DNA of 64,000 nt, taken from Caballeronia udeis. GTDB lineage: Bacteria > Pseudomonadota > Gammaproteobacteria > Burkholderiales > Burkholderiaceae. A model generated the notes under the pieces. The model was given only the letters and a program-made list of their open reading frames with translations. It did not search any database and had not been told where the DNA came from. Made by a program: the position numbers and the translations under genes. The DNA lies in the NCBI RefSeq assembly GCF_001544555.2, contig NZ_FCOK02000023.1, positions 1 through 64,000 on the forward strand, read 5' to 3'. Each line of letters opens with the position of its first letter. Position 1 is the first letter of the stretch. Below are positions 32,136 to 58,728 of the stretch, in pieces.

Positions 32136-32301
32136 AGCAGCGTCGGCCGAACGGCCGAGTTGACAATGCGAGACTCATAATTTCGCTGCGAGCTTACTGC
32201 TGTAAGGCTTTGAACCGTATTTCAAGATTCGGACATGTCTTATTCCGGGGTTTCCGGCGGATCGGTATCTTCTAATCACTTACTTGTGACTGGAGAGAAC
32301 C

Positions 32302-32796
32302 ATGAAGCCTTACCGCGATATGTCCGACGAAGAATGGCAAATGGTCGCGCCTTTGCTGCCCGAGTTGCGGCCTCGTCCCGAGTTGCGCGGGCGGCCGCTC
32401 GCCAACACCCGCGCCGTGCTCAACGGCGTGCTCTGGGTCATGTACAGCGGCGCTTCATGGTCAACATTGCCCCGCAAATATCCGTCGTATCAGACATGCC
32501 ACCGGCGCTTCAAGGCGTGGCACGAATCCGGTGTGCTCGGGCGCGTGATGCAGCAATTGTTCGGCCCAGCGAGTGAAGGGTTGTATTCGCTGATGACCTC
32601 GCGCATGCGAGTGCCAACCGAGTTACCCGAGGGATTGGGCGACCATGCGGTTGCTGCGGATATCGCTCAGCTTGCGGAGATGCAGGGCGATGTGCGGCCC
32701 GTGCTCATGCCGCCTGGGTCGCTCGTTCCGCTCGGACCGCTGACCCCGGCCGAGCCGGTTGAATACACGCGGGGCGGTGTGCGTCACGCGGCCTGA
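32302..32796 (+). CDS. orphan DUF4096 (IS5-type transposase N-terminal domain) protein
   Basis: A 164-residue protein with the IS5-type N-terminal helix-turn-helix (DUF4096) at residues 1-90: MSDEEWQMVAPLLPEL, RGRPLANTRAVLNGVLWVM, SWSTLPRKYPSYQTCHRRF and a following KAWHESGVL. There is no DDE catalytic domain. Residues 95-164 are unrelated and proline/valine-rich. A good site (GGAGAG) precedes the ATG and a strong terminator follows, so this looks like a properly expressed gene rather than debris. It is a clear paralogue of the protein at 3483-3881. No IS ends are seen. It may have become a host DNA-binding protein; this is inference. Confidence 0.75.
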   Translation: MKPYRDMSDEEWQMVAPLLPELRPRPELRGRPLANTRAVLNGVLWVMYSGASWSTLPRKYPSYQTCHRRFKAWHESGVLGRVMQQLFGPASEGLYSLMTSRMRVPTELPEGLGDHAVAADIAQLAEMQGDVRPVLMPPGSLVPLGPLTPAEPVEYTRGGVRHAA

Positions 32797-33549: not shown

Positions 33550-34726
33550 TCAATTGAATTGGTAGGAAAAGGTTGCGTTGACGCGCGGGCGGCGCGATCC
33601 GCTCCCTTCCAGCGGGGCATCGCTCACCGGTTTCGCCAGCGATAAATCCAGGCTGTAGTACTTAGCATCGGAGATCCGGAAGCCCACGCCTATTGATGCC
33701 AGGCGGCTTGGTTTCGCGCCGCCGGCATGGAGATACGTGTGGGCGGTATCGACGGAAACGTCGGGCGTGAAGGTCTTCAAAAACGCCAGGCCAATTGCAA
33801 ACGGCCGGTTGATTTCGGCCGATGCGGCCCAACCCGAATCGCCCGATACTTCTCCCGGCTGATAACCGAGCGCGAAGCGTTGTCCGCCAAATGCGATCTG
33901 TTCCGACGTCGGCAGGGAGTCCGCACTGTATTGTCCGGTCGCCGCAATCGCGGTGCCTATCTTGAACGGCCATTCGTTGGTCTGCGAGACCGTCGCGCCG
34001 GTGCGCACGAAGGTGAGCGACGCAGGGTTGGTCGTGACAACGCCCGGAATGTTGGTGTCCGCCGATTTCGATGCCCCAAGCACATCGAACGCTTTCGCCA
34101 CGTTCAGGCTCGCGCGCCGTACAGTTCCCGTATCCACGCCGGTGTAGTCGAGTTGCAACGTGGTTACACGCACCTGCGAACGCTGGCCAAGCTGCGCGCC
34201 CGTGATGGTGTTCTTGTAGCGGTCCTCGTCATGCGAAGCGTACGCGCCGACCGTGCCGATCAGGTTGCGCGTGTTGCTCAACACGAACGTATACGACGCA
34301 GACAGGCCCACTTTGTCGTTGACGACAGTGCGCTCGACATAGGAGGGTAGATAGGGGTTATCGACAGGATGTCCATAGTAGTGCGATGCATCTACCTTGA
34401 CGGTGAAGCCGTCGGTACCTATTGGCAATGAGCCGTTGACGTCGAAATAGGTCTGATCGTCGCGGCCCTTGGGCGCGAGCGCCGAGACGCCCAGCGTCTC
34501 ACCCTGTCCGAGCAGGCCGTTTTCCGTTGCAGTAATAATCCCCTGCACACCGGAATGATTCATGTCTATCCCGGTCGCGAAATTGAAGGGCTTGCGCTCG
34601 ACATCGAGATCGAGCGTGGTCGCGCCGTCGGTGGTCTGCGGGGGCGCCAAGGGCCAACACGGTCGCGATAGCCGCGGTGAGAATGGTGACGCGCAATGCG
34701 CCGCTTTGGATTTGGATGGTCTTCAT
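33550..34726 (-). pseudogene. TpsB (ShlB/FhaC) outer-membrane porin, POTRA-less and frameshifted
   Basis: A broken two-partner-secretion transporter gene. On the reverse strand an intact start (ATG 34726, with GAGGG upstream) and signal peptide (about 29 residues ending LALGAP) are followed by a +1 frame change at a run of five C (34640-34644). The rest, 33550 to about 34645, reads the end of the second POTRA domain (TTLDLDVERKPF) and the complete 16-strand barrel (about 340 residues, ending SYQFN). One C fewer would restore the frame. Even then the two POTRA domains (about 180 residues), needed to bind the exported TpsA partner, would be missing. So an internal deletion happened as well. No TpsA gene is nearby. 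Confidence 0.8.
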
Positions 34727-34921
34727 AACGCCCTCGGATGGTATTTAGTTTTTGCTTTTTGAATTGCCATCGTCTTATTGCAGGACGCGTGCCATTTGTA
34801 TGGAGGATGACGAACGGTTTGGTATGAATAAAGGATTAACCAGACGGTACAAGGCCTGGCATGGCTTTGCCGGTGGGCCGAAGGTCTTGAGGAAATGGGG
34901 CGACGCCGCGCCGAGGTCTCA

Positions 34922-34986
34922 CGTAACGTAACGTGCGGTCAAGGTCGTTACGCCTTGGCCCGTAACGCCGTATGCGTCGGGTTACG
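34922..34986. repeat. cluster of GTAACG words around a hairpin
   Basis: GTAACG or its complement occurs at 34923, 34928, 34946, 34962 and 34981 (GTTACG). GGTCAAGG (34937-34944) and CCTTGGCC (34953-34960) can form a hairpin with CGTTACG in the loop region. Confidence 0.45.
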
Positions 34987-35623: not shown

Positions 35624-35785
35624 ATGTCTAAGTTTATCAAAGGCTTCGTCAAAGACGAACGCGGCGTCACTGCCATTGAATACGCGATTATTGCCGGTCT
35701 TATCGCGGTTGCACTCGCGGCCTCGGTAGGTGGCGTTGTCACGAAACTGCAGAGCGTGTTCACCTCTATTGTGGGTGTGTTATAG
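35624..35785 (+). CDS. flp: Flp/Fap-type pilin (type IVb prepilin)
   Basis: A 53-residue Flp prepilin, the major subunit of Tad pili. The start at 35624 has GAGGGAAG upstream. The leader MSKFIKGFVKDERG is cut after glycine by a TadV/CpaA prepilin peptidase. The mature protein begins VTAIEYAIIAGLIAVAL, with the conserved Glu-Tyr pair of Flp pilins, and is little more than one hydrophobic helix. The gene has its own promoter and a stable hairpin downstream, as is common for highly expressed pilin genes. It is intact although the assembly machinery downstream is broken. Confidence 0.93.
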   Translation: MSKFIKGFVKDERGVTAIEYAIIAGLIAVALAASVGGVVTKLQSVFTSIVGVL

Positions 35786-37079: not shown

Positions 37080-38045
37080 ATGGCTAACATTACCCGCATC
37101 CTCGCTGTGTCCCTGATCGTACTTGCCGTGCTGCTCGGCATTTTCGCGTGGACCCTCTCGCGCCGGCCTGTGGCGCCCGTGCCGCAGATCGTGCAGGGCC
37201 AGGCAAGCTTTCCCGTGGTCGTGGCCAAGCGCGATCTGCCTCCCGGCAAGCCGATCGACGCCGATGCATTGACCTTGCGGATGGCGCCATCGCGCGGAGC
37301 GGGTGAGTTCGCCGATGCCACTGGGCTCGTGGGGCGCGTGCCACTGATCGCGATAACCGCGAATACGCCGCTCTCCGAAGCGAATCTCACTACCGGACTT
37401 GCCGATGCCATCGCCCCCGGCGAACGTGCCATCGCGGTGCGGGTGGACGAGGGCAATGCGGTGGGCAACCGGGTGCGGCCGGGCAATTTCGTCGACGTGT
37501 TTTTCATGCTCAAACGCGATATGTCCGCTGGTCCTGGCGCGGATGCGGAGGTGGATGCGACGCAAGCGCGGCTGTTGTTGTCGAAGGTCCGGGTGCTCAG
37601 TTTCGGCGATGCGACGCTGCCCGGCACGTCGGATGCTGGCGACGCTAACGCCAACGCGGCCAATGCCCCGCGCGGTGCGGGTGCGCGTACGGCGGTGCTG
37701 GCCGTGCGCACGGCGGATATCGATGCGCTCACGCTCGCCGAAGGCGCAGGCCGTCTGGTGCTGGCGCTGCGTAATCCCGCCGACACCGACATAGCCGAGC
37801 CGCCCGCCATGGCACCGCTTCTCGCATCGATAAGGATGCCGAATAATGATGCATCGCGTGCGGCTACGGGTTTGTCCCTGGAGGCGCTGGCGGGTTCCCG
37901 TGGCGAACGGTCGGCGCGCACGCCGGTCATGCCGCCATTGCCGGCAATGCCTTCCATGCTTGCGGCGCGTGCGCCGCGTGTTCAGGCGGTGTCGAATGAT
38001 CTCGAGTTGATTCGCGGTGCGCATAGGGAAAAGGTGACGTACTGA
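37080..38045 (+). CDS. cpaB: Flp pilus assembly protein CpaB/RcpC
   Basis: A 321-residue periplasmic Tad protein with an N-terminal membrane anchor (residues 7-26). A SAF domain lies at about 42-105 (VVVAKRDLPPGKPIDADAL) and the RcpC/CpaB domain at about 110-245 (AIAVRVDEGNAVGNRVRPGNFVDVFF). It is thought to work with the CpaC secretin at the outer membrane. The C-terminal 70 residues are Pro/Ala-rich. The reading frame is intact, unlike tadE and cpaE on either side. It starts 34 bp after the tadE remnant and is followed by cpaC after 83 bp. Confidence 0.9.
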   Translation: MANITRILAVSLIVLAVLLGIFAWTLSRRPVAPVPQIVQGQASFPVVVAKRDLPPGKPIDADALTLRMAPSRGAGEFADATGLVGRVPLIAITANTPLSEANLTTGLADAIAPGERAIAVRVDEGNAVGNRVRPGNFVDVFFMLKRDMSAGPGADAEVDATQARLLLSKVRVLSFGDATLPGTSDAGDANANAANAPRGAGARTAVLAVRTADIDALTLAEGAGRLVLALRNPADTDIAEPPAMAPLLASIRMPNNDASRAATGLSLEALAGSRGERSARTPVMPPLPAMPSMLAARAPRVQAVSNDLELIRGAHREKVTY

Positions 38046-38128: not shown

Positions 38129-39658
38129 ATGCCGCCGTATGGCGACAAAGCAGTACGCAGTCGATATATAAAAATCATGAAAGCCACGGCTTCTTATCGA
38201 GGACACGGCGTCTCTGGCGCTGGTCGGTTATTGCTCGCCACGCTGGTGTGCGCGTGTACGGCGAGTCCGTACGCCAGTGCGAAGACTGCTAGGCCTGCGG
38301 CTGATGTGGCCGACTCGGCGGTGTCGAGGGTTATCGACATCACCGTCGGCGCCCAGAAGCAGATCGCGATGGGGCGCACATTGCAGCGTGTTGCCGTGGG
38401 CGACCCCGCGGTCGCGGACGTGCTTTGGCTCAAGAGCAGCAGTGGTGCGAACGGTGGCTTGTTGCTGGTCGGAAAAAGCGCGGGACGTACCGAGATGATG
38501 ATCTGGGAGCGCGGTCAGGGCGCGCCCCGGACCTACACGATCAACGTCACCACGCTGGCCGCCCGCAAACTGCTCGGCAGCGATACACCTGCGGTGAACG
38601 TGCTTGGCCGGACAGCGGTTGTAACGGGGTCCGCCGCGAGCATGGATGCCCATGAGCTTGCTATCGCCGTAGCGAGGGAGTCGGTTGCGGGTACCACCGG
38701 TTCGCCGGATACGTCATCAGGAGCATCAGCCAAGGATTCGCGCGGGCAGAACGGCGGTTCGCCTGACCCGGCGGTGACCGGAGGCAGTAGCGGGGGCGGT
38801 GCGAAGGAGGGCGCGGTCCTCGATGCATCGACGGTGGCGACAAGTCCCGTCGTGCAGGTCGATGTGAAGGTGGTCGAATTCAGCAAGGCTGTGCTGAAGG
38901 AAGCGGGCTTCAATTTCTTCAAGCAGAACAACGCGTTTGCATTCGGCACTTTCTCGCCTTCGTCGGTGACGTCGTATACAGGGGGCGCAACCTCGAATCT
39001 GCAGGTCATGTCCACGACGCCCATCAGCAGCGCGTTCAACCTGATGGTGAACCTCGGGACTCGCGGTATTTTCGCGAACCTGAGCCTGCTCGAATCGAAC
39101 AACCTGGCGCGCGTGCTGGCCGAGCCGACGCTTGTCGCATTGTCGGGGCAGAGTGCGAGCTTTCTCGCAGGCGGCGAGATCCCGGTGCCGGTGCCGCAGT
39201 CCCTTGGGACGATCAGCATTGTCTATAAGCCCTACGGTATCGGGTTGACCGTCACACCGACCGTGCTCGGGCCGCGGCGGATCGCGCTGACCATCAATGG
39301 CATTTCGGTGCCGGCCATCACGACGCGGCGTGCGGACACCACAGTCGAACTCGGCGACGGCGAGAGTTTCGTGATCGGCGGCCTGATCGATCGCGAGACG
39401 GCATCGAACGTCGACAAAGTGCCGTTGCTCGGCGACTTGCCGATCATCGGCTCGTTCTTCAAGACCTTGCAATACACGCAGAACGATCGCGAACTGGTGA
39501 TCATCGTGACACCGCACCTGGTCTCGCCGATCGCAAAGGGCGCAGTGCTTCCCGCCACGCCCGGCGAGCAATCCGAGCAGCGCGACGGACCGGTGTGGCG
39601 CTCGTTCATGGGAGGTGTCGCGGCGTCGAGTGACGAGGTGCCGGGGTTCTCGAAATGA
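38129..39658 (+). CDS. cpaC: Tad secretin CpaC/RcpA
   Basis: The outer-membrane secretin of the Tad system, 509 residues from ATG 38129; an ATG at 38177 gives a more typical signal peptide (GRLLLATLVCACTASPYASA) but has no ribosome binding site. The N-terminal pilus domain is at about residues 70-155 (RVIDITVGAQKQIAMG, VAVGDPAVADVLWL). A Gly/Ser-rich linker (190-235) replaces the usual BON region in part. The secretin channel domain is at about 300-485, with the hallmark GGEIPVPVP, LTVTPTVLGPRRIALTI and VPLLGDLPIIGSFFK. The frame is intact and would still give a secretin although the motor is missing. Confidence 0.92.
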   Translation: MPPYGDKAVRSRYIKIMKATASYRGHGVSGAGRLLLATLVCACTASPYASAKTARPAADVADSAVSRVIDITVGAQKQIAMGRTLQRVAVGDPAVADVLWLKSSSGANGGLLLVGKSAGRTEMMIWERGQGAPRTYTINVTTLAARKLLGSDTPAVNVLGRTAVVTGSAASMDAHELAIAVARESVAGTTGSPDTSSGASAKDSRGQNGGSPDPAVTGGSSGGGAKEGAVLDASTVATSPVVQVDVKVVEFSKAVLKEAGFNFFKQNNAFAFGTFSPSSVTSYTGGATSNLQVMSTTPISSAFNLMVNLGTRGIFANLSLLESNNLARVLAEPTLVALSGQSASFLAGGEIPVPVPQSLGTISIVYKPYGIGLTVTPTVLGPRRIALTINGISVPAITTRRADTTVELGDGESFVIGGLIDRETASNVDKVPLLGDLPIIGSFFKTLQYTQNDRELVIIVTPHLVSPIAKGAVLPATPGEQSEQRDGPVWRSFMGGVAASSDEVPGFSK

Positions 39659-39787: not shown

Positions 39788-40926
39788 ATGAACGCAAGAG
39801 TTCTATCTTTGACTGAGACGGAAGCGCGTCCTCCAGGCGTCCGGTTCCTGTGCGTCTGCTCGGATTCGGGACACCGGGCCTGGCTCGCGCACGCGCTGGG
39901 TACGCTGGGCGCGCTCGAGTATGTGCCGTTCGACGCTGTCGAGTTGATGCCGAAGATATCGACGCTGGGCGCCGCGATGGTGTTCATCGACTTTGCCCGC
40001 GCGCCGCTTGAAGCGCCCGAGGCCAGCATCGCAAGCGCGACCGCCGTGGCGGCCGCAGTGCACGATGCATTCCCGGGAGTTGCCATTGTTGCGCTCGGTC
40101 ACTGCAGCAGTCGGCTAGCGCGATTGCGGCATTGCGCGCCGGTGTACGTGATTTTATCGACGTGGAAGGTGAGCCTGGCGAAGCACTTCGGATTGCGAAG
40201 CAGTTGATCGAGCAGGCCGGCCAGTCCGCGAAGACAGAACAGATCACCAACCGTCACGGGCATATGACGGTGTTGCTCGGCGCGCGTATTGGCGTAGGCG
40301 TCAGCACGCTGGCGGCGAACCTGGCGGTGAAGCTGCAAAAGCGTGGTACGGCAGCGGCGAAGACCGCCGCGCTGCTCGACTTGGGCATTCCCGCTGCCGA
40401 CAGTTCGGTGTTGCTCGACACGCAAAGCGAATTTAATTTCGTCGATGCCGTGCGTAACCTGCGCCGCTTCGACCAGACCTTCGTCCATACCGCGTTCGGG
40501 CGCCACGTGAGTGGCCTGGCGGTAACCACACTGCCGCCGGATCTCACGGCGATGCGCGAGGTGTCGTATGCGTCGGCGGTGAACCTGGTTAACCGGTTGC
40601 GGACCTTCTTCGATCACCAGATCGTCGATCTCGGCGGTTTTACCAACCTTGAGTTTGTCGCGCAGATGGTGCGTGCCGCGGACAACGTGTGGCTGGTTTG
40701 CGATCCGAACGTGGCGTCAGCGGTGTCCGCCATGGAGTTGCTGGAAGGCCTGCGTTTCCAGGATGTCGATGCGCGCTTGCCGAAGGATCGCGATACCGCC
40801 GATGCGCCGCAGAAGCTGCAGCTGGTCGTGAACAAGTTCGATCCTATGTTGCAATTTGGCGCCGAGCAGATTGCCGAGCGGCTTGGCTTGCCGCTGCTCG
40901 CGGTGCTGCCGGCGCGGGCGCTGTGA
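39788..40926 (+). pseudogene. cpaE: cpaE/tadZ, frameshifted and 3'-truncated
   Basis: CpaE/TadZ is the MinD-like ATPase that places the Tad apparatus. The gene starts at ATG 39788 (GGAGAAAG upstream) and reads the receiver-like N-terminal domain up to about 40104. A 1-base frame change in the CAGCAG run (40104-40111) then breaks it. The remainder continues in another frame (ALRAGVRDFIDVEGEPGEAL; deviant Walker [37 protein letters not shown]) as far as LPLLAVLPA. There the last 60 or more residues are missing and the sequence runs into a sigma-54 activator gene. So it carries two lesions. Confidence 0.82.
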
Positions 40927-41660
40927 TCGCGCACAAAGGTTACTTCGAACAAGCCGACGGCGGTACGTTGTTCCTCGATGAAATCGGCGATATGCCGCTC
41001 TATCAGCAGGTCAAGTTATTGCGCGTGCTGGAAGACAGTGCGGTCACGCGGATCGGTTCGGCCACACCGGTCAAGGTGGATTTCCGGCTGGTCGCCGCGA
41101 CTCACAAGAGCCTGCCGCAATTGGTGAAGGACGGCGACTTCCGCGCGGATCTTTACTATCGGCTGGCGGTGATCGAGTTGAAGATTCCGTCGCTGGAGGA
41201 ACGCGGGGCACTGGACAAGATTGCGTTGTTCAAGTCGTTCATCGCGCAGGTGGTGGGGCAAGAGAAGCTCGCGACCTTGCCCGAGTTGCCGTACTGGCTG
41301 GCCGATGCCGTCGCCGATAATTATTTCCCCGGCAACGTGCGTGAGCTGCGCAATCTGGCGGAGCGCATAGGCGTGACTGTGCGGCAAGTGGGATCGTGGG
41401 ATACCGCGCGGCTGCAACGCTTGCTTACGCTTGCCCGCACCTCTCAGCCGGTGCCGCCAGAGCTGAGTGCTGAAGTGATCGTTGATCGCAGCAAGTGGGA
41501 CATGAACGAACGCAACCGCGTGCTGGCCGCCCTCGAGGCGAACGGCTGGCGGCGGCAGGATACCGCGAGTCACCTTGGCATCAGCCGCAAGGAGCTGTGG
41601 GAAAAAATGCGCAAGTTCCAGATCTTCGACGAAGAACCTGAAACTCGCGCCGAGGAGTGA
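40917..41660 (+). pseudogene. 3' remnant of a sigma-54-dependent activator (AAA+ EBP)
   Basis: The C-terminal part of a PspF/NtrC-like enhancer-binding protein, about 247 residues. It begins with the last residues of the GAFTGA loop ([16 protein letters not shown]). Walker B ([12 protein letters not shown]), the sensor I/arginine-finger segment ([20 protein letters not shown]), sensor II ([16 protein letters not shown]) and a Fis-type helix-turn-helix ([20 protein letters not shown]) remain. Walker A and all regulatory sequence are missing, so it cannot hydrolyse ATP. In Burkholderia-type Tad loci such an activator lies at the far end of the cluster. Its fusion to cpaE marks a large deletion. 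It has no start codon of its own with a site. Confidence 0.8.
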
Positions 41661-52983: not shown

Positions 52984-53474
52984 TACCGTAATCTCCCCAT
53001 TCGCGTAATTGATTAATCATGACGACGTCACCGAGGCCTTCTCTGCGCCGCGCCGGATAAGGCGCTCGGCTGGTGTCGGCAGGTTGGAGTGTACGCCGCT
53101 GTTTAATTGGATGCTCGCAACGATCACTCAAACTGGTATTAACCCCGGTATGGTTTCACGTTTGCTGGGCAACACGTCAATCGAATGGCTTTCGATTAAG
53201 CCCGATACTTAAAGAAAATGAAAGTTAATTGAATTATTTTTGTATTAAACAGGTTTGCGGGAGAGGGGCGTCCGAGCTTCACTTGGGGTCAAGACATCGG
53301 TTTATCTACGGACAAGTTCGCTCACTGTGCGCATCATGTACTCCTGGTGTGGTGGTTGACCCCTCGACTCTAGCGAGCGGCCAGCCGGTGCGCTGCGGCG
53401 GAAACGCCATTCGATACGCTTTCCACGCCAACGGCACGGCTCATGAGCCATTGAAAGCCGCTAATTGAAGGCCG
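52984..53474. other. intergenic region between MFS and Lrp genes
   Basis: A gap of 491 bp. It should hold the MFS promoter and the 3' end of the Lrp transcript. Near the MFS start there are short palindromes (ATTACCGTAAT at 52983-52993). A 67-codon forward frame at 53009 has no support. The middle (53220-53250) is AT-rich. Confidence 0.4.
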
Positions 53475-56877: not shown

Positions 56878-57016
56878 GAGCAACAGCTCCCTCTTGATCG
56901 CAGGCTCATTCTGATCGGATGAGCCATGCAGTTAACCTGCCGCGCGATTGACGCATTTATGTTGTGCGGAGCCACTGCGCCGCGGTATAAAAGCCGTTCC
57001 AGAGGGTTCCCCGGCC

Positions 57017-57344
57017 ATGTCCGCTCCGCTTCTTGATCCTGCAAAAACTCATTCGGCTGATGGCCCGGTGTTGATCGCGGTCGAGCTATCCGGCGATGAC
57101 GCGCGTGTCACCAGGTCTCGTTGCTACGCCCGTGGCAAGACTTCGGTGCGCTTCGCGGCTTCGCGGCTTCGCGCGTCCGATGCGGGCGTTGGAGATGCTT
57201 GCATCGGGCACGGCGGTCACGACTATTGCGCTCGATCTCGGTTATGAAAACGTCAGCGCGTTCATTGCGATGTTTCGACGGACCTTCGGTGTGACGCCAA
57301 CCCAATATTTTGCTGAGCTAGTACCTGACCGGAAAGAACCATGA
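57017..57344 (+). pseudogene. AraC-family regulator remnant
   Basis: Two pieces of an AraC-type regulator in different frames. The first (from ATG 57017) reads an N-terminal stretch, ADGPVLIAVELSGDDARVT then SRCYARG. The second (to 57344) reads the second helix-turn-helix, RALEMLASGTAVTTIALDLG, YENVSAFIAMFRRTFGVTP, TQYF. The middle, about 150-180 residues, is missing. At the join lies an 8-bp tandem repeat, CTTCGCGG, 2.9 copies at 57151-57173. The stop overlaps the ATG of the decarboxylase gene by 4 bases, so the intact gene was probably its translationally coupled regulator. Confidence 0.75.
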
Positions 57345-58687
57345 ACGAACTAACACTGCTGACCGAAGCCGATGATCGTGCCCGGCGCTATACCGAGTCC
57401 ATTCCGGGGCGCCGCGTGTTCCCGGATCAAGCGGCGTTGCAGGCTCTGGCCGCATTCAACGAGCCACTGCCCGTTCACGGATACGCCGCGGAGGACGTGT
57501 TGCGATTACTGGACGATATCGGTTCGCCCGGCACGGTGGCGTCGAACGGACCGCGTTACTTTGGTTTTGTGATTGGTGCGTCGCTGCCTGCCGCTGCGGC
57601 CGCAGAACGCTTGATGCTTGCATGGGACCAATGTGCATCGTCATTCGACAACTCACCGGTCGCGGCCACGCTCGAACGGGTCGCGGCGGGTTGGGTCCTT
57701 GATGCGCTCGACCTGCCTCGCGAAAGTGCCGTGGGATTCGGAACCAGCGCCACGGCTTGCACGCTGAGCTGCCTTGCCGCTGCGCGTCGCGTGCTGCTTG
57801 CGCGCAAGGGATGGGACTTCGACAACGACGGACTGGCAGGTGCTCCCGAGGTTAAGGTCGTGGTGTCCGAGCTTGTGCATATCACCGTGAAAAAGGCGCT
57901 TCGCCTGCTTGGTTTCGGCATGAACAAGATACTGTTCGCGCCGGTCAACCACCATGGTCAGGTGGACCCGGAACGTTTGCCGCCGCTCGATGACATGACC
58001 ATCCTTTGTTTGCAGGCGGGTGAGGTCAACACCGGCGAATTCGATCCATTCGACGTGCTCATTCCTCAAGCCAAGGCCGCCGGTACCTGGGTTCATGTGG
58101 ATGCGGCGTTCGGCTTGTGGGCGCGGGCTTCATCGCATGCGGAATTGACGAAAGGCATAGAAGCGGCCGATAGCTGGACCACCGACGCCCATAAATGGCT
58201 GAACACCCCCTACGACTGCGCGATGGCAATCTGCCGCGATAGCGAAGCGCTCGCCGCTGCAATGAATAGCGATGCAGTCTATTTGAGCGGCGCGAGAGAC
58301 GCGCAAAAGAACCTGACTCTCGAATTTTCGCGAAGGGCTCGCGGCATACCTGTGTGGGCCGCGTTGCGCTCGTTAGGACGTGAAGGCGTGGCTTTACTAG
58401 GCGACCGGCAATGCGCGCTGGCGCGTCGCATTGCACAGGGCTTGGCACAGGCGGGATTCGAGGTCCTGAACCGTGTCACGCTGAACCAGGTCCTGGTTCG
58501 CGCGCATACCGATGAACTCACCGTTGCTGCCCGCGAAGCGGTCCAGGCGTCCGGCGAGGCCTGGTTTGGCGCGACCGTCTGGCAAGGGCGGCCGGCCTTC
58601 CGGATCAGCGTGTCATCCTGGCGGACGACGGAACACGAAGCCGACGCACTCGTGCAATTGTTGACCAGGCTTGCAAAGCCGCGCTAA
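57341..58687 (+). CDS. group II PLP-dependent amino-acid decarboxylase family protein
   Basis: A 448-residue fold-type I PLP enzyme of the aromatic-amino-acid/glutamate decarboxylase family. The PLP lysine is K285 in TDAHKWLNTPYD. WVHVDAAFGLWAR carries the aspartate that binds the pyridine nitrogen. SNGPRYFGFVIGASLPAAAA and GFGTSATACTLSCLAAARR are N-terminal family marks. Typical reactions are amine formation by decarboxylation or aldehyde synthesis; the substrate cannot be read from sequence. It follows an AraC remnant with an ATGA overlap and lies after the mdeB-like gene on the same strand, so a shared amino-acid breakdown role is possible. Confidence 0.88.
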   Translation: MNELTLLTEADDRARRYTESIPGRRVFPDQAALQALAAFNEPLPVHGYAAEDVLRLLDDIGSPGTVASNGPRYFGFVIGASLPAAAAAERLMLAWDQCASSFDNSPVAATLERVAAGWVLDALDLPRESAVGFGTSATACTLSCLAAARRVLLARKGWDFDNDGLAGAPEVKVVVSELVHITVKKALRLLGFGMNKILFAPVNHHGQVDPERLPPLDDMTILCLQAGEVNTGEFDPFDVLIPQAKAAGTWVHVDAAFGLWARASSHAELTKGIEAADSWTTDAHKWLNTPYDCAMAICRDSEALAAAMNSDAVYLSGARDAQKNLTLEFSRRARGIPVWAALRSLGREGVALLGDRQCALARRIAQGLAQAGFEVLNRVTLNQVLVRAHTDELTVAAREAVQASGEAWFGATVWQGRPAFRISVSSWRTTEHEADALVQLLTRLAKPR

Positions 58688-58728
58688 GCAACGCGGCGGT
58701 CATCGCGCTATTGGCGCGGTTCGCGAGG

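What the first reader, a model, noticed from the sequence alone, without database searches (positions are those of the whole stretch)
39788..41660. Deletion scar joins cpaE to a sigma-54 activator and removes the Tad motor
Seen: cpaE reads up to LPLLAVLPA and then, at 40911-40920, the sequence becomes the end of the GAFTGA loop and the rest of an AAA+ sigma-54 activator. The activator lacks Walker A. Known: in Tad loci cpaE is followed by cpaF (ATPase), tadB, tadC, tadD and minor pilins. In Burkholderia relatives a sigma-54 activator lies near the far end. Inference: one deletion of several kb, perhaps through the GGCG-rich short homology at the junction, removed all of them. This leaves a pilin with no motor.
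Basis: partly seen in the sequence, partly recalled or inferred. Interest (0 to 1): 0.75.

Follow-up and report, generated by a model that had tools for sequence, protein, structure and literature searches.

The report
Recently wrecked Tad pilus gene cluster
This bacterium has recently lost a 7.6-kb block that held the motor of one of its two Tad pilus systems and half of the regulator gene beside it; the loss is ordinary gene decay, but comparison with intact relatives exposed a conserved switch that probably ties that regulator to a neighbouring collagen-like adhesin.

Summary
At 40917-40919 cpaE stops matching relatives, and the sequence resumes inside the AAA+ domain of the sigma-54 activator that closes the same Tad locus in Caballeronia and Burkholderia. 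Five related genomes keep 7,552-7,640 bp there: the cpaE 3' end, cpaF, tadB, tadC, tadD, a DUF3613 gene, tadG and the activator's 5' half. That DNA was not found elsewhere in this assembly. Of 58 genomes of the genus, only this one matches straight across the join.

The scar is not alone. cpaE is also frameshifted, tadE has lost 67-70 bp, and the divergent collagen-like/ShlB operon has lost 2.7-3.0 kb. Substitution patterns suggest the damage is recent. The genome keeps a second, divergent, apparently complete Tad locus, so "no motor" holds for this locus only.

Additional result: in relatives the divergent promoter region carries a sigma-54 site and a 31-bp motif (CGTAACGTWACG-N12-CGTTACG); both were present in 16 of 16 flp-bearing loci in a set I chose, though less uniformly among named loci. 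By position and length the activator corresponds to BCAL1536 (GtrR) of B. cenocepacia. I infer that GtrR drives the adjacent collagen-like adhesin operon, and that this lineage lost regulator, motor and adhesin together.

The parts
33553..34650 (-). Remnant of a ShlB-type two-partner secretion transporter; POTRA part lost
   Evidence: Matches PF03865 only, while relative L078 has POTRA_2 plus ShlB; truncated against G129
34643..34647 (.). Deletion scar, 5-bp GGCGC overlap; 2,718-2,990 bp present in five relatives are missing
34648..34726 (-). First codons (signal peptide) of the collagen-like lipoprotein gene; the rest is deleted
   Evidence: Collagen_mid in relatives
34779..34794 (-). Putative sigma-54 -24/-12 promoter of the collagen-like/ShlB operon
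   Evidence: consensus recalled
34922..34952 (.). 31-bp motif CGTAACGTAACG-N12-CGTTACG, putative activator binding site
35624..35785 (+). flp pilin gene, open
   Evidence: PF04964
35999..36586 (+). cpaA prepilin peptidase, open; start codon uncertain
   Evidence: PF01478
36583..36918 (+). tadE, broken: 67-70 bp missing near 36.82 kb put it out of frame
   Evidence: PF07811 on the 5' part
37080..38045 (+). cpaB/rcpC, open
   Evidence: TIGR03177 above cut-off
38129..39658 (+). cpaC/rcpA secretin, open
   Evidence: PF00263
39788..40919 (+). cpaE/tadZ, frameshifted near 40.1 kb and cut off by the deletion
40917..40919 (.). Main deletion junction (GGC overlap); 7,552-7,640 bp present in five relatives are missing
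40917..41660 (+). Remnant of the sigma-54 activator (GtrR-like): rear part of AAA+ domain, lid and Fis-type HTH; no Walker A

Best explanation
This is a dead, recently eroded Tad pilus locus in a Caballeronia close to C. sordidicola. One deletion of about 7.6 kb joined the interior of cpaE to the interior of the terminal sigma-54 activator and removed motor, platform, TadD, TadG and the activator's N-terminal half (shown by comparison with relatives). The ends share only GGC and no longer repeat lies there, so illegitimate recombination is the likely mechanism (inferred). Separate lesions in tadE, in cpaE and in the divergent collagen-like/ShlB operon complete the wreck (shown). In relatives the region between the two operons carries a conserved sigma-54 site and a 31-bp motif, so the activator probably switches on the collagen-like operon and belongs to the same surface-adhesion programme as the pilus; once one part failed the rest lost its value and collected lesions (inferred, order unknown).
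For: Both flanks are collinear with relatives that keep 7.4-7.6 kb between them. The missing DNA is not elsewhere in the assembly. The lost genes have the expected domains. Of 58 genus genomes only G000 matches across the join; at least 16 others have both halves on one contig 6.8-7.6 kb apart. Three further lesions lie in the same block. cpaE is intact in five of five relatives. No repeat at the junction.
Against: No reads were seen, so the join itself is unproven. There is one genome of this species only. The genes left open show no clear sign of decay, which fits recent damage but also intact function. Overlaps of 3 bp or more arise by chance in 6.6% of random joins, so the main scar alone barely supports microhomology. 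The activator-promoter link has no experimental support here.
Confidence: 0.9

Rival explanations
1. Assembly error: the join is a misassembly and the 7.6 kb exists in the cell.
For: The assembly has 242 contigs and no reads were available; no protein among the best 120 listed by a capped search covers more than 80% of the ORF that crosses the join, so there is no independent record of it.
Against: The missing stretch is not found on any other contig. The overlap is 3 bp with no repeat. Three other lesions lie nearby in the same system. The join is 40 kb inside a 113.6-kb contig.
Confidence: 0.05
2. A working short form: cpaE and activator form a functional fusion or a minimal locus.
For: Activator remnant keeps low dN/dS (0.051, relatives 0.046). 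A GTG overlaps the cpaE stop.
Against: Frames differ at the join, cpaE is frameshifted upstream, Walker A is gone. Derived changes in the remnant lean towards relaxation (3N/9S against 2N/53S in relatives, p 0.037, uncorrected). No relative shares the form.
Confidence: 0.02
3. Selected loss: removal of pilus and adhesin was favoured, for example to avoid phages or a host response.
For: Four lesions in two divergent surface operons and recent on the branch: about 3-5%, at most 9-14%, under an assumed neutral N/S of 2-3. Lack of Flp expression is said to be common in B. cenocepacia outbreak isolates (PMC7970998, passage).
Against: Neutral decay after a first lesion gives the same clustering; there is one genome per species, so no frequency data.
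Confidence: 0.25

Closest known systems
Tad/Flp (type IVc) pilus locus of Burkholderia, BCAL1525-1537 type
   Same: Gene order flp, cpaA, tadE, cpaB, cpaC, cpaE, then in relatives cpaF, tadB, tadC, tadD, DUF3613, tadG, activator
   Different: Here everything from the cpaE 3' end to the activator's middle is deleted, and tadE and cpaE are also broken
GtrR (BCAL1536) of B. cenocepacia
   Same: Position at the end of the flp operon and length of 463 aa in relatives (PMC8174753 and PMC2753556 passages); L072 activator is 75% identical to the one in B. cenocepacia NCTC13227 (L082)
   Different: Only the C-terminal half remains here. I did not compare with the BCAL1536 sequence itself; the correspondence is by locus, species and length
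Collagen-like lipoprotein operon BCAL1524-1520
   Same: Divergent from flp, Collagen_mid domain, followed by a ShlB-type transporter (PMC10224339 passages)
   Different: In this genome the collagen-like gene is almost entirely deleted and the transporter truncated

Membership tests
Functional Tad pilus locus | Flp pilin and prepilin peptidase genes | tested here: met
   PF04964 and PF01478
Functional Tad pilus locus | CpaF motor ATPase and TadB/TadC platform in the locus | tested here: not met
   Deleted; a divergent set is on contig C116
Functional Tad pilus locus | Intact CpaE and TadE | tested here: not met
   Frameshift and truncation, 67-70 bp loss
Sigma-54 enhancer-binding protein | Complete AAA+ domain with Walker A | tested here: not met
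   PF00158 only from position 85
Sigma-54 enhancer-binding protein | C-terminal Fis-type HTH | tested here: met
   PF02954
GtrR regulon (proposed) | Sigma-54 site plus 31-bp motif before the Collagen_mid operon in loci with the activator's Tad type | tested here: met
   16 of 16 flp-bearing loci in a chosen set; among 16 named loci with flp, exact motif in 12 and no sigma-54 site in L088
GtrR regulon (proposed) | Binding by GtrR and sigma-54-dependent transcription | not testable with these tools
   Needs EMSA and promoter fusions

The most novel reading that the evidence does not exclude
The Tad-end activator (GtrR), reported as the output partner of the BDSF/c-di-GMP sensor RpfR, acts first of all on the neighbouring sigma-54 promoter of the collagen-like adhesin/ShlB operon through the 31-bp motif CGTAACGTWACG-N12-CGTTACG. 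Pilus and collagen-like adhesin thus form one old Burkholderiaceae surface programme, and the present genome is a natural case in which regulator, motor and adhesin were deleted together.
Probability: 0.65. Interest if true: 0.5.

Novelty: new member of a known kind. Interest (0 to 1): 0.33.

Why it matters
As gene loss this is routine. It matters a little more because the scar led to a conserved promoter architecture, seen from Caballeronia to the B. cepacia complex, that offers a direct and testable target and binding site for GtrR, a regulator reported to act in quorum sensing and c-di-GMP signalling. It also shows pilus, adhesin and regulator being lost as a set.

Tried and rejected
In-frame cpaE-activator fusion: rejected, the frames differ and cpaE is frameshifted upstream. 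Deletion through a long repeat: no repeat at the junction; I did not search separately for insertion sequences. Old pseudogene: disfavoured, most remaining genes show no raised dN/dS, with the exceptions told in the full report. Short arrangement shared by relatives: not found. Orthologous motor elsewhere in the genome: not found; the T2SSE-family protein on C15 lies near a TraN-like gene and I do not take it for a Tad motor. Sigma-54 site serving flp: none conserved on that strand. The scan of the window for sigma-54-like sites at up to 2 mismatches gave fewer hits than chance (24 against 34.6 expected), so the proposed site rests on conservation and position, not on that scan. Genomes with the activator but without an orthologous cpaF (G116, G139, G144) were read: in G116 the contig ends inside tadB; G139 and G144 are 3.9-Mb genomes with partial or broken loci. 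My tadB query was cut in the wrong frame (one search prints one stop), so tadB identities are not reliable. Papers PMC4371752 and PMC5552954 were searched for flp or pilus passages and gave nothing that bears on this.

They showed TadE- and TadG-like genes in the C116 locus and intact cpaE in five relatives, and sorted the flagged frames.

Full report
Check of the observation. cpaE is read in two frames, 39788-40207 and 40132-40926, and stops matching relatives at 40916-40919. From 40915-40917 on the sequence matches the activator at the far end of the same locus. In relatives the right-hand side of the junction reads [12 protein letters not shown], so the join lies inside the sigma-54 contact loop (my reading of the printed DNA). 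The remnant matches PF00158 only from position 85 of 168, so the Walker A part is absent. The frames do not agree: cpaE's frame ends at TGA 40924-40926.

What is missing. In G129, G126, G128, G131 and G141 there are 7,589, 7,608, 7,640, 7,552 and 7,565 bp between the two points; in G009 and G047 about 7.4-7.5 kb. therefore overlap and are not independent. The lost stretch encodes the CpaE C-terminus, CpaF (T2SSE), TadB and TadC (T2SSF), a TPR protein taken as TadD, a DUF3613 protein, a TadG-like protein (Tad, Tad_C) and the activator's N-terminal half. A search of this genome with that stretch finds the two flanks at 87% and 94%, a 67% match to cpaF on C116, and matches to sigma-54 activator domains.

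Is it shared? Among 58 genomes of the genus only G000 matches through the join. At least 16 others have both halves on one contig with 6.8-7.6 kb between the matched pieces: G126, G128, G129, G131, G125, G141, G009, G047, G124, G127, G138, G115, G113, G120, G132, G146 (the list is truncated, and in G132 and G146 the cpaE match ends short of the junction). CpaF pieces of at least 84% identity occur in 20 of 58; in 17 of 58 they cover nearly the whole protein in one open frame (list truncated). Most others have only the divergent type at 44-51%.

More lesions. Against all five relatives the window has lost 67-70 bp in tadE, 2,718-2,990 bp between the ShlB-type gene and the collagen-like gene, and one base in cpaE near 40.1 kb. 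Exact overlaps are GGC at the main scar and GGCGC at the ShlB/collagen scar; for tadE I read about 3 bp by eye. In simulated random joins overlaps of at least 3 and at least 5 bp occur in 6.6% and 0.7%, so the main scar alone is weak evidence for microhomology. Of 62 G129 ORFs compared with the window, 30 are intact, 18 are flagged and 14 have no hit. Within the block lie 5 flagged and 6 without a hit; the other 8 without a hit form one stretch of G129 at window 53.3 kb that the window lacks. Of the 13 flagged outside the block, 5 are explained by an intact, conserved window ORF at the same place, mostly in another frame. Four are also interrupted in at least two of the four other relatives. 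One, at 43-44 kb, has one stop in the window over its full 356 codons, while an open 340-aa frame remains. Three short ones (near 0.7, 2.9 and 62 kb) I could not settle. Damage to clearly conserved genes is thus seen only in this block, with those three open.

Age. Mean dN/dS, window to relatives against among relatives: cpaB 0.121/0.130, cpaC 0.167/0.141, cpaA 0.191/0.245, flp 0.264/0.262, cpaE 3' part 0.086/0.115, activator remnant 0.051/0.046. Two pieces are raised: the cpaE 5' part, 0.216/0.093, and the tadE start, 0.416/0.102, the latter on only 2 relatives. Derived changes over seven tad pieces: window 20N/68S; relatives G129 14/58, G126 5/47, G128 10/52, G131 11/34, G141 20/96; none differs from the window at p<0.05 (lowest 0.067), and tadE was left out because too few relatives aligned. 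The broken pieces alone hint at relaxation (9N/28S against 16N/117S, p 0.07; activator p 0.037; cpaE 5' part p 0.008; uncorrected), the unbroken ones do not (p 0.85). With an assumed neutral N/S of 2-3 the locus has been free of constraint for about 3-5% of its branch, at most 9-14%.

Second motor. The genome has four T2SSE matches and six T2SSF matches. C116 carries a second Tad locus: pilin, peptidase, CpaB, secretin, CpaD, CpaE, CpaF, two T2SSF proteins and a TPR protein, a Tad/TadG-like protein and a weak TadE match just under its cut-off. Its CpaF is 44-49% identical to the lost type. Whether it could serve the orphan Flp pilin is unknown; I think it unlikely.

The regulator and its promoter. 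The region between the divergent operons holds TGGCACGCGTCCTGCA on the minus strand, 68 nt before the collagen-like start, conserved in all 7 relatives aligned, with one spacer change in G131. Burkholderia loci L081, L082, L084, L085 and L086 have a perfect consensus (consensus recalled). The first long minus-strand ORF begins 62-78 nt below the start of the site in 12 of 15 loci examined; L089 has a nearer start call, L037 has no such ORF in the DNA held and L087 does not fit. Upstream lies CGTAACGTAACG-N12-CGTTACG. As an exact pattern with a gap of 8-20 it is found in 13 of 58 genus genomes and 15 of 100 family genomes, once each, and the reversed control in none. These are 25 distinct genomes: 23 have it at a Tad locus of this kind (a few kb upstream of cpaE on the same contig, or beside flp and Collagen_mid), while G148 and G037 do not. 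I then fetched 18 further stretches of my choosing; 16 contained flp, 7 of them already known to have the exact motif. All 16 had the motif within 3 mismatches, a minus-strand sigma-54 site within 2 mismatches 96-163 bp away, and a minus-strand Collagen_mid gene. Against this, among 16 named loci with flp the exact motif is missing in L037, L080, L087 and L088, and L088 has no sigma-54 site. The activator (E <= 1e-150) occurs in 46 of 100 family genomes, the G000 remnant included, many more than carry the exact motif, so the motif varies or is absent in farther genera.

Literature. In B. cenocepacia the two putative operons are BCAL1524-1520 and BCAL1525-1537, and genes of both fall in a cepR mutant (PMC2753556, passages). 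BCAL1520, BCAL1523, BCAL1524 and flp genes rise together on contact with host-derived vesicles (PMC7970998, passages). BCAL1523 and BCAL1524 are Collagen_mid lipoproteins beside the flp operon (PMC10224339, passages). [quoted passage not shown] GtrR has 463 residues (PMC8174753, passages), like the relatives' activators here. From titles, abstract starts and the passages I saw, the searches listed no paper that ties GtrR to a sigma-54 promoter of the collagen-like operon; the original GtrR report and subscription papers were not seen.

Verdict. It is an ordinary kind of event. The conserved promoter and motif are the more useful outcome.

Noticed in passing
window 34779-34794 (-) and 34922-34952: Conserved sigma-54 site and 31-bp motif between the collagen-like/ShlB operon and the flp operon, kept in this genome although its likely activator and target gene are broken.
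   Followed up: yes
window 33550-34726: A second deletion scar fuses the start of a collagen-like lipoprotein gene to a ShlB-type transporter out of frame.
   Followed up: yes
L115 (G144), L117 (G139); genomes G140 and G113: Smaller genomes of the genus (3.8-5.1 Mb) have partial or interrupted copies of the same Tad locus, suggesting repeated loss.
   Followed up: partly
window 53327-53329: G129 carries about 9 kb here, including three similar short ORFs in a row, that the window lacks; the site varies among relatives.
   Followed up: no
window 56878-58726: About 1.8 kb absent from G129, with a 448-aa ORF at 57341-58687 that looks like a pyridoxal-phosphate decarboxylase (recalled, not searched).
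   Followed up: no
window 32235-32796: Overlapping short ORFs that look like a degenerate transposase (my reading, not searched); an ORF here is also present in G129.
   Followed up: no
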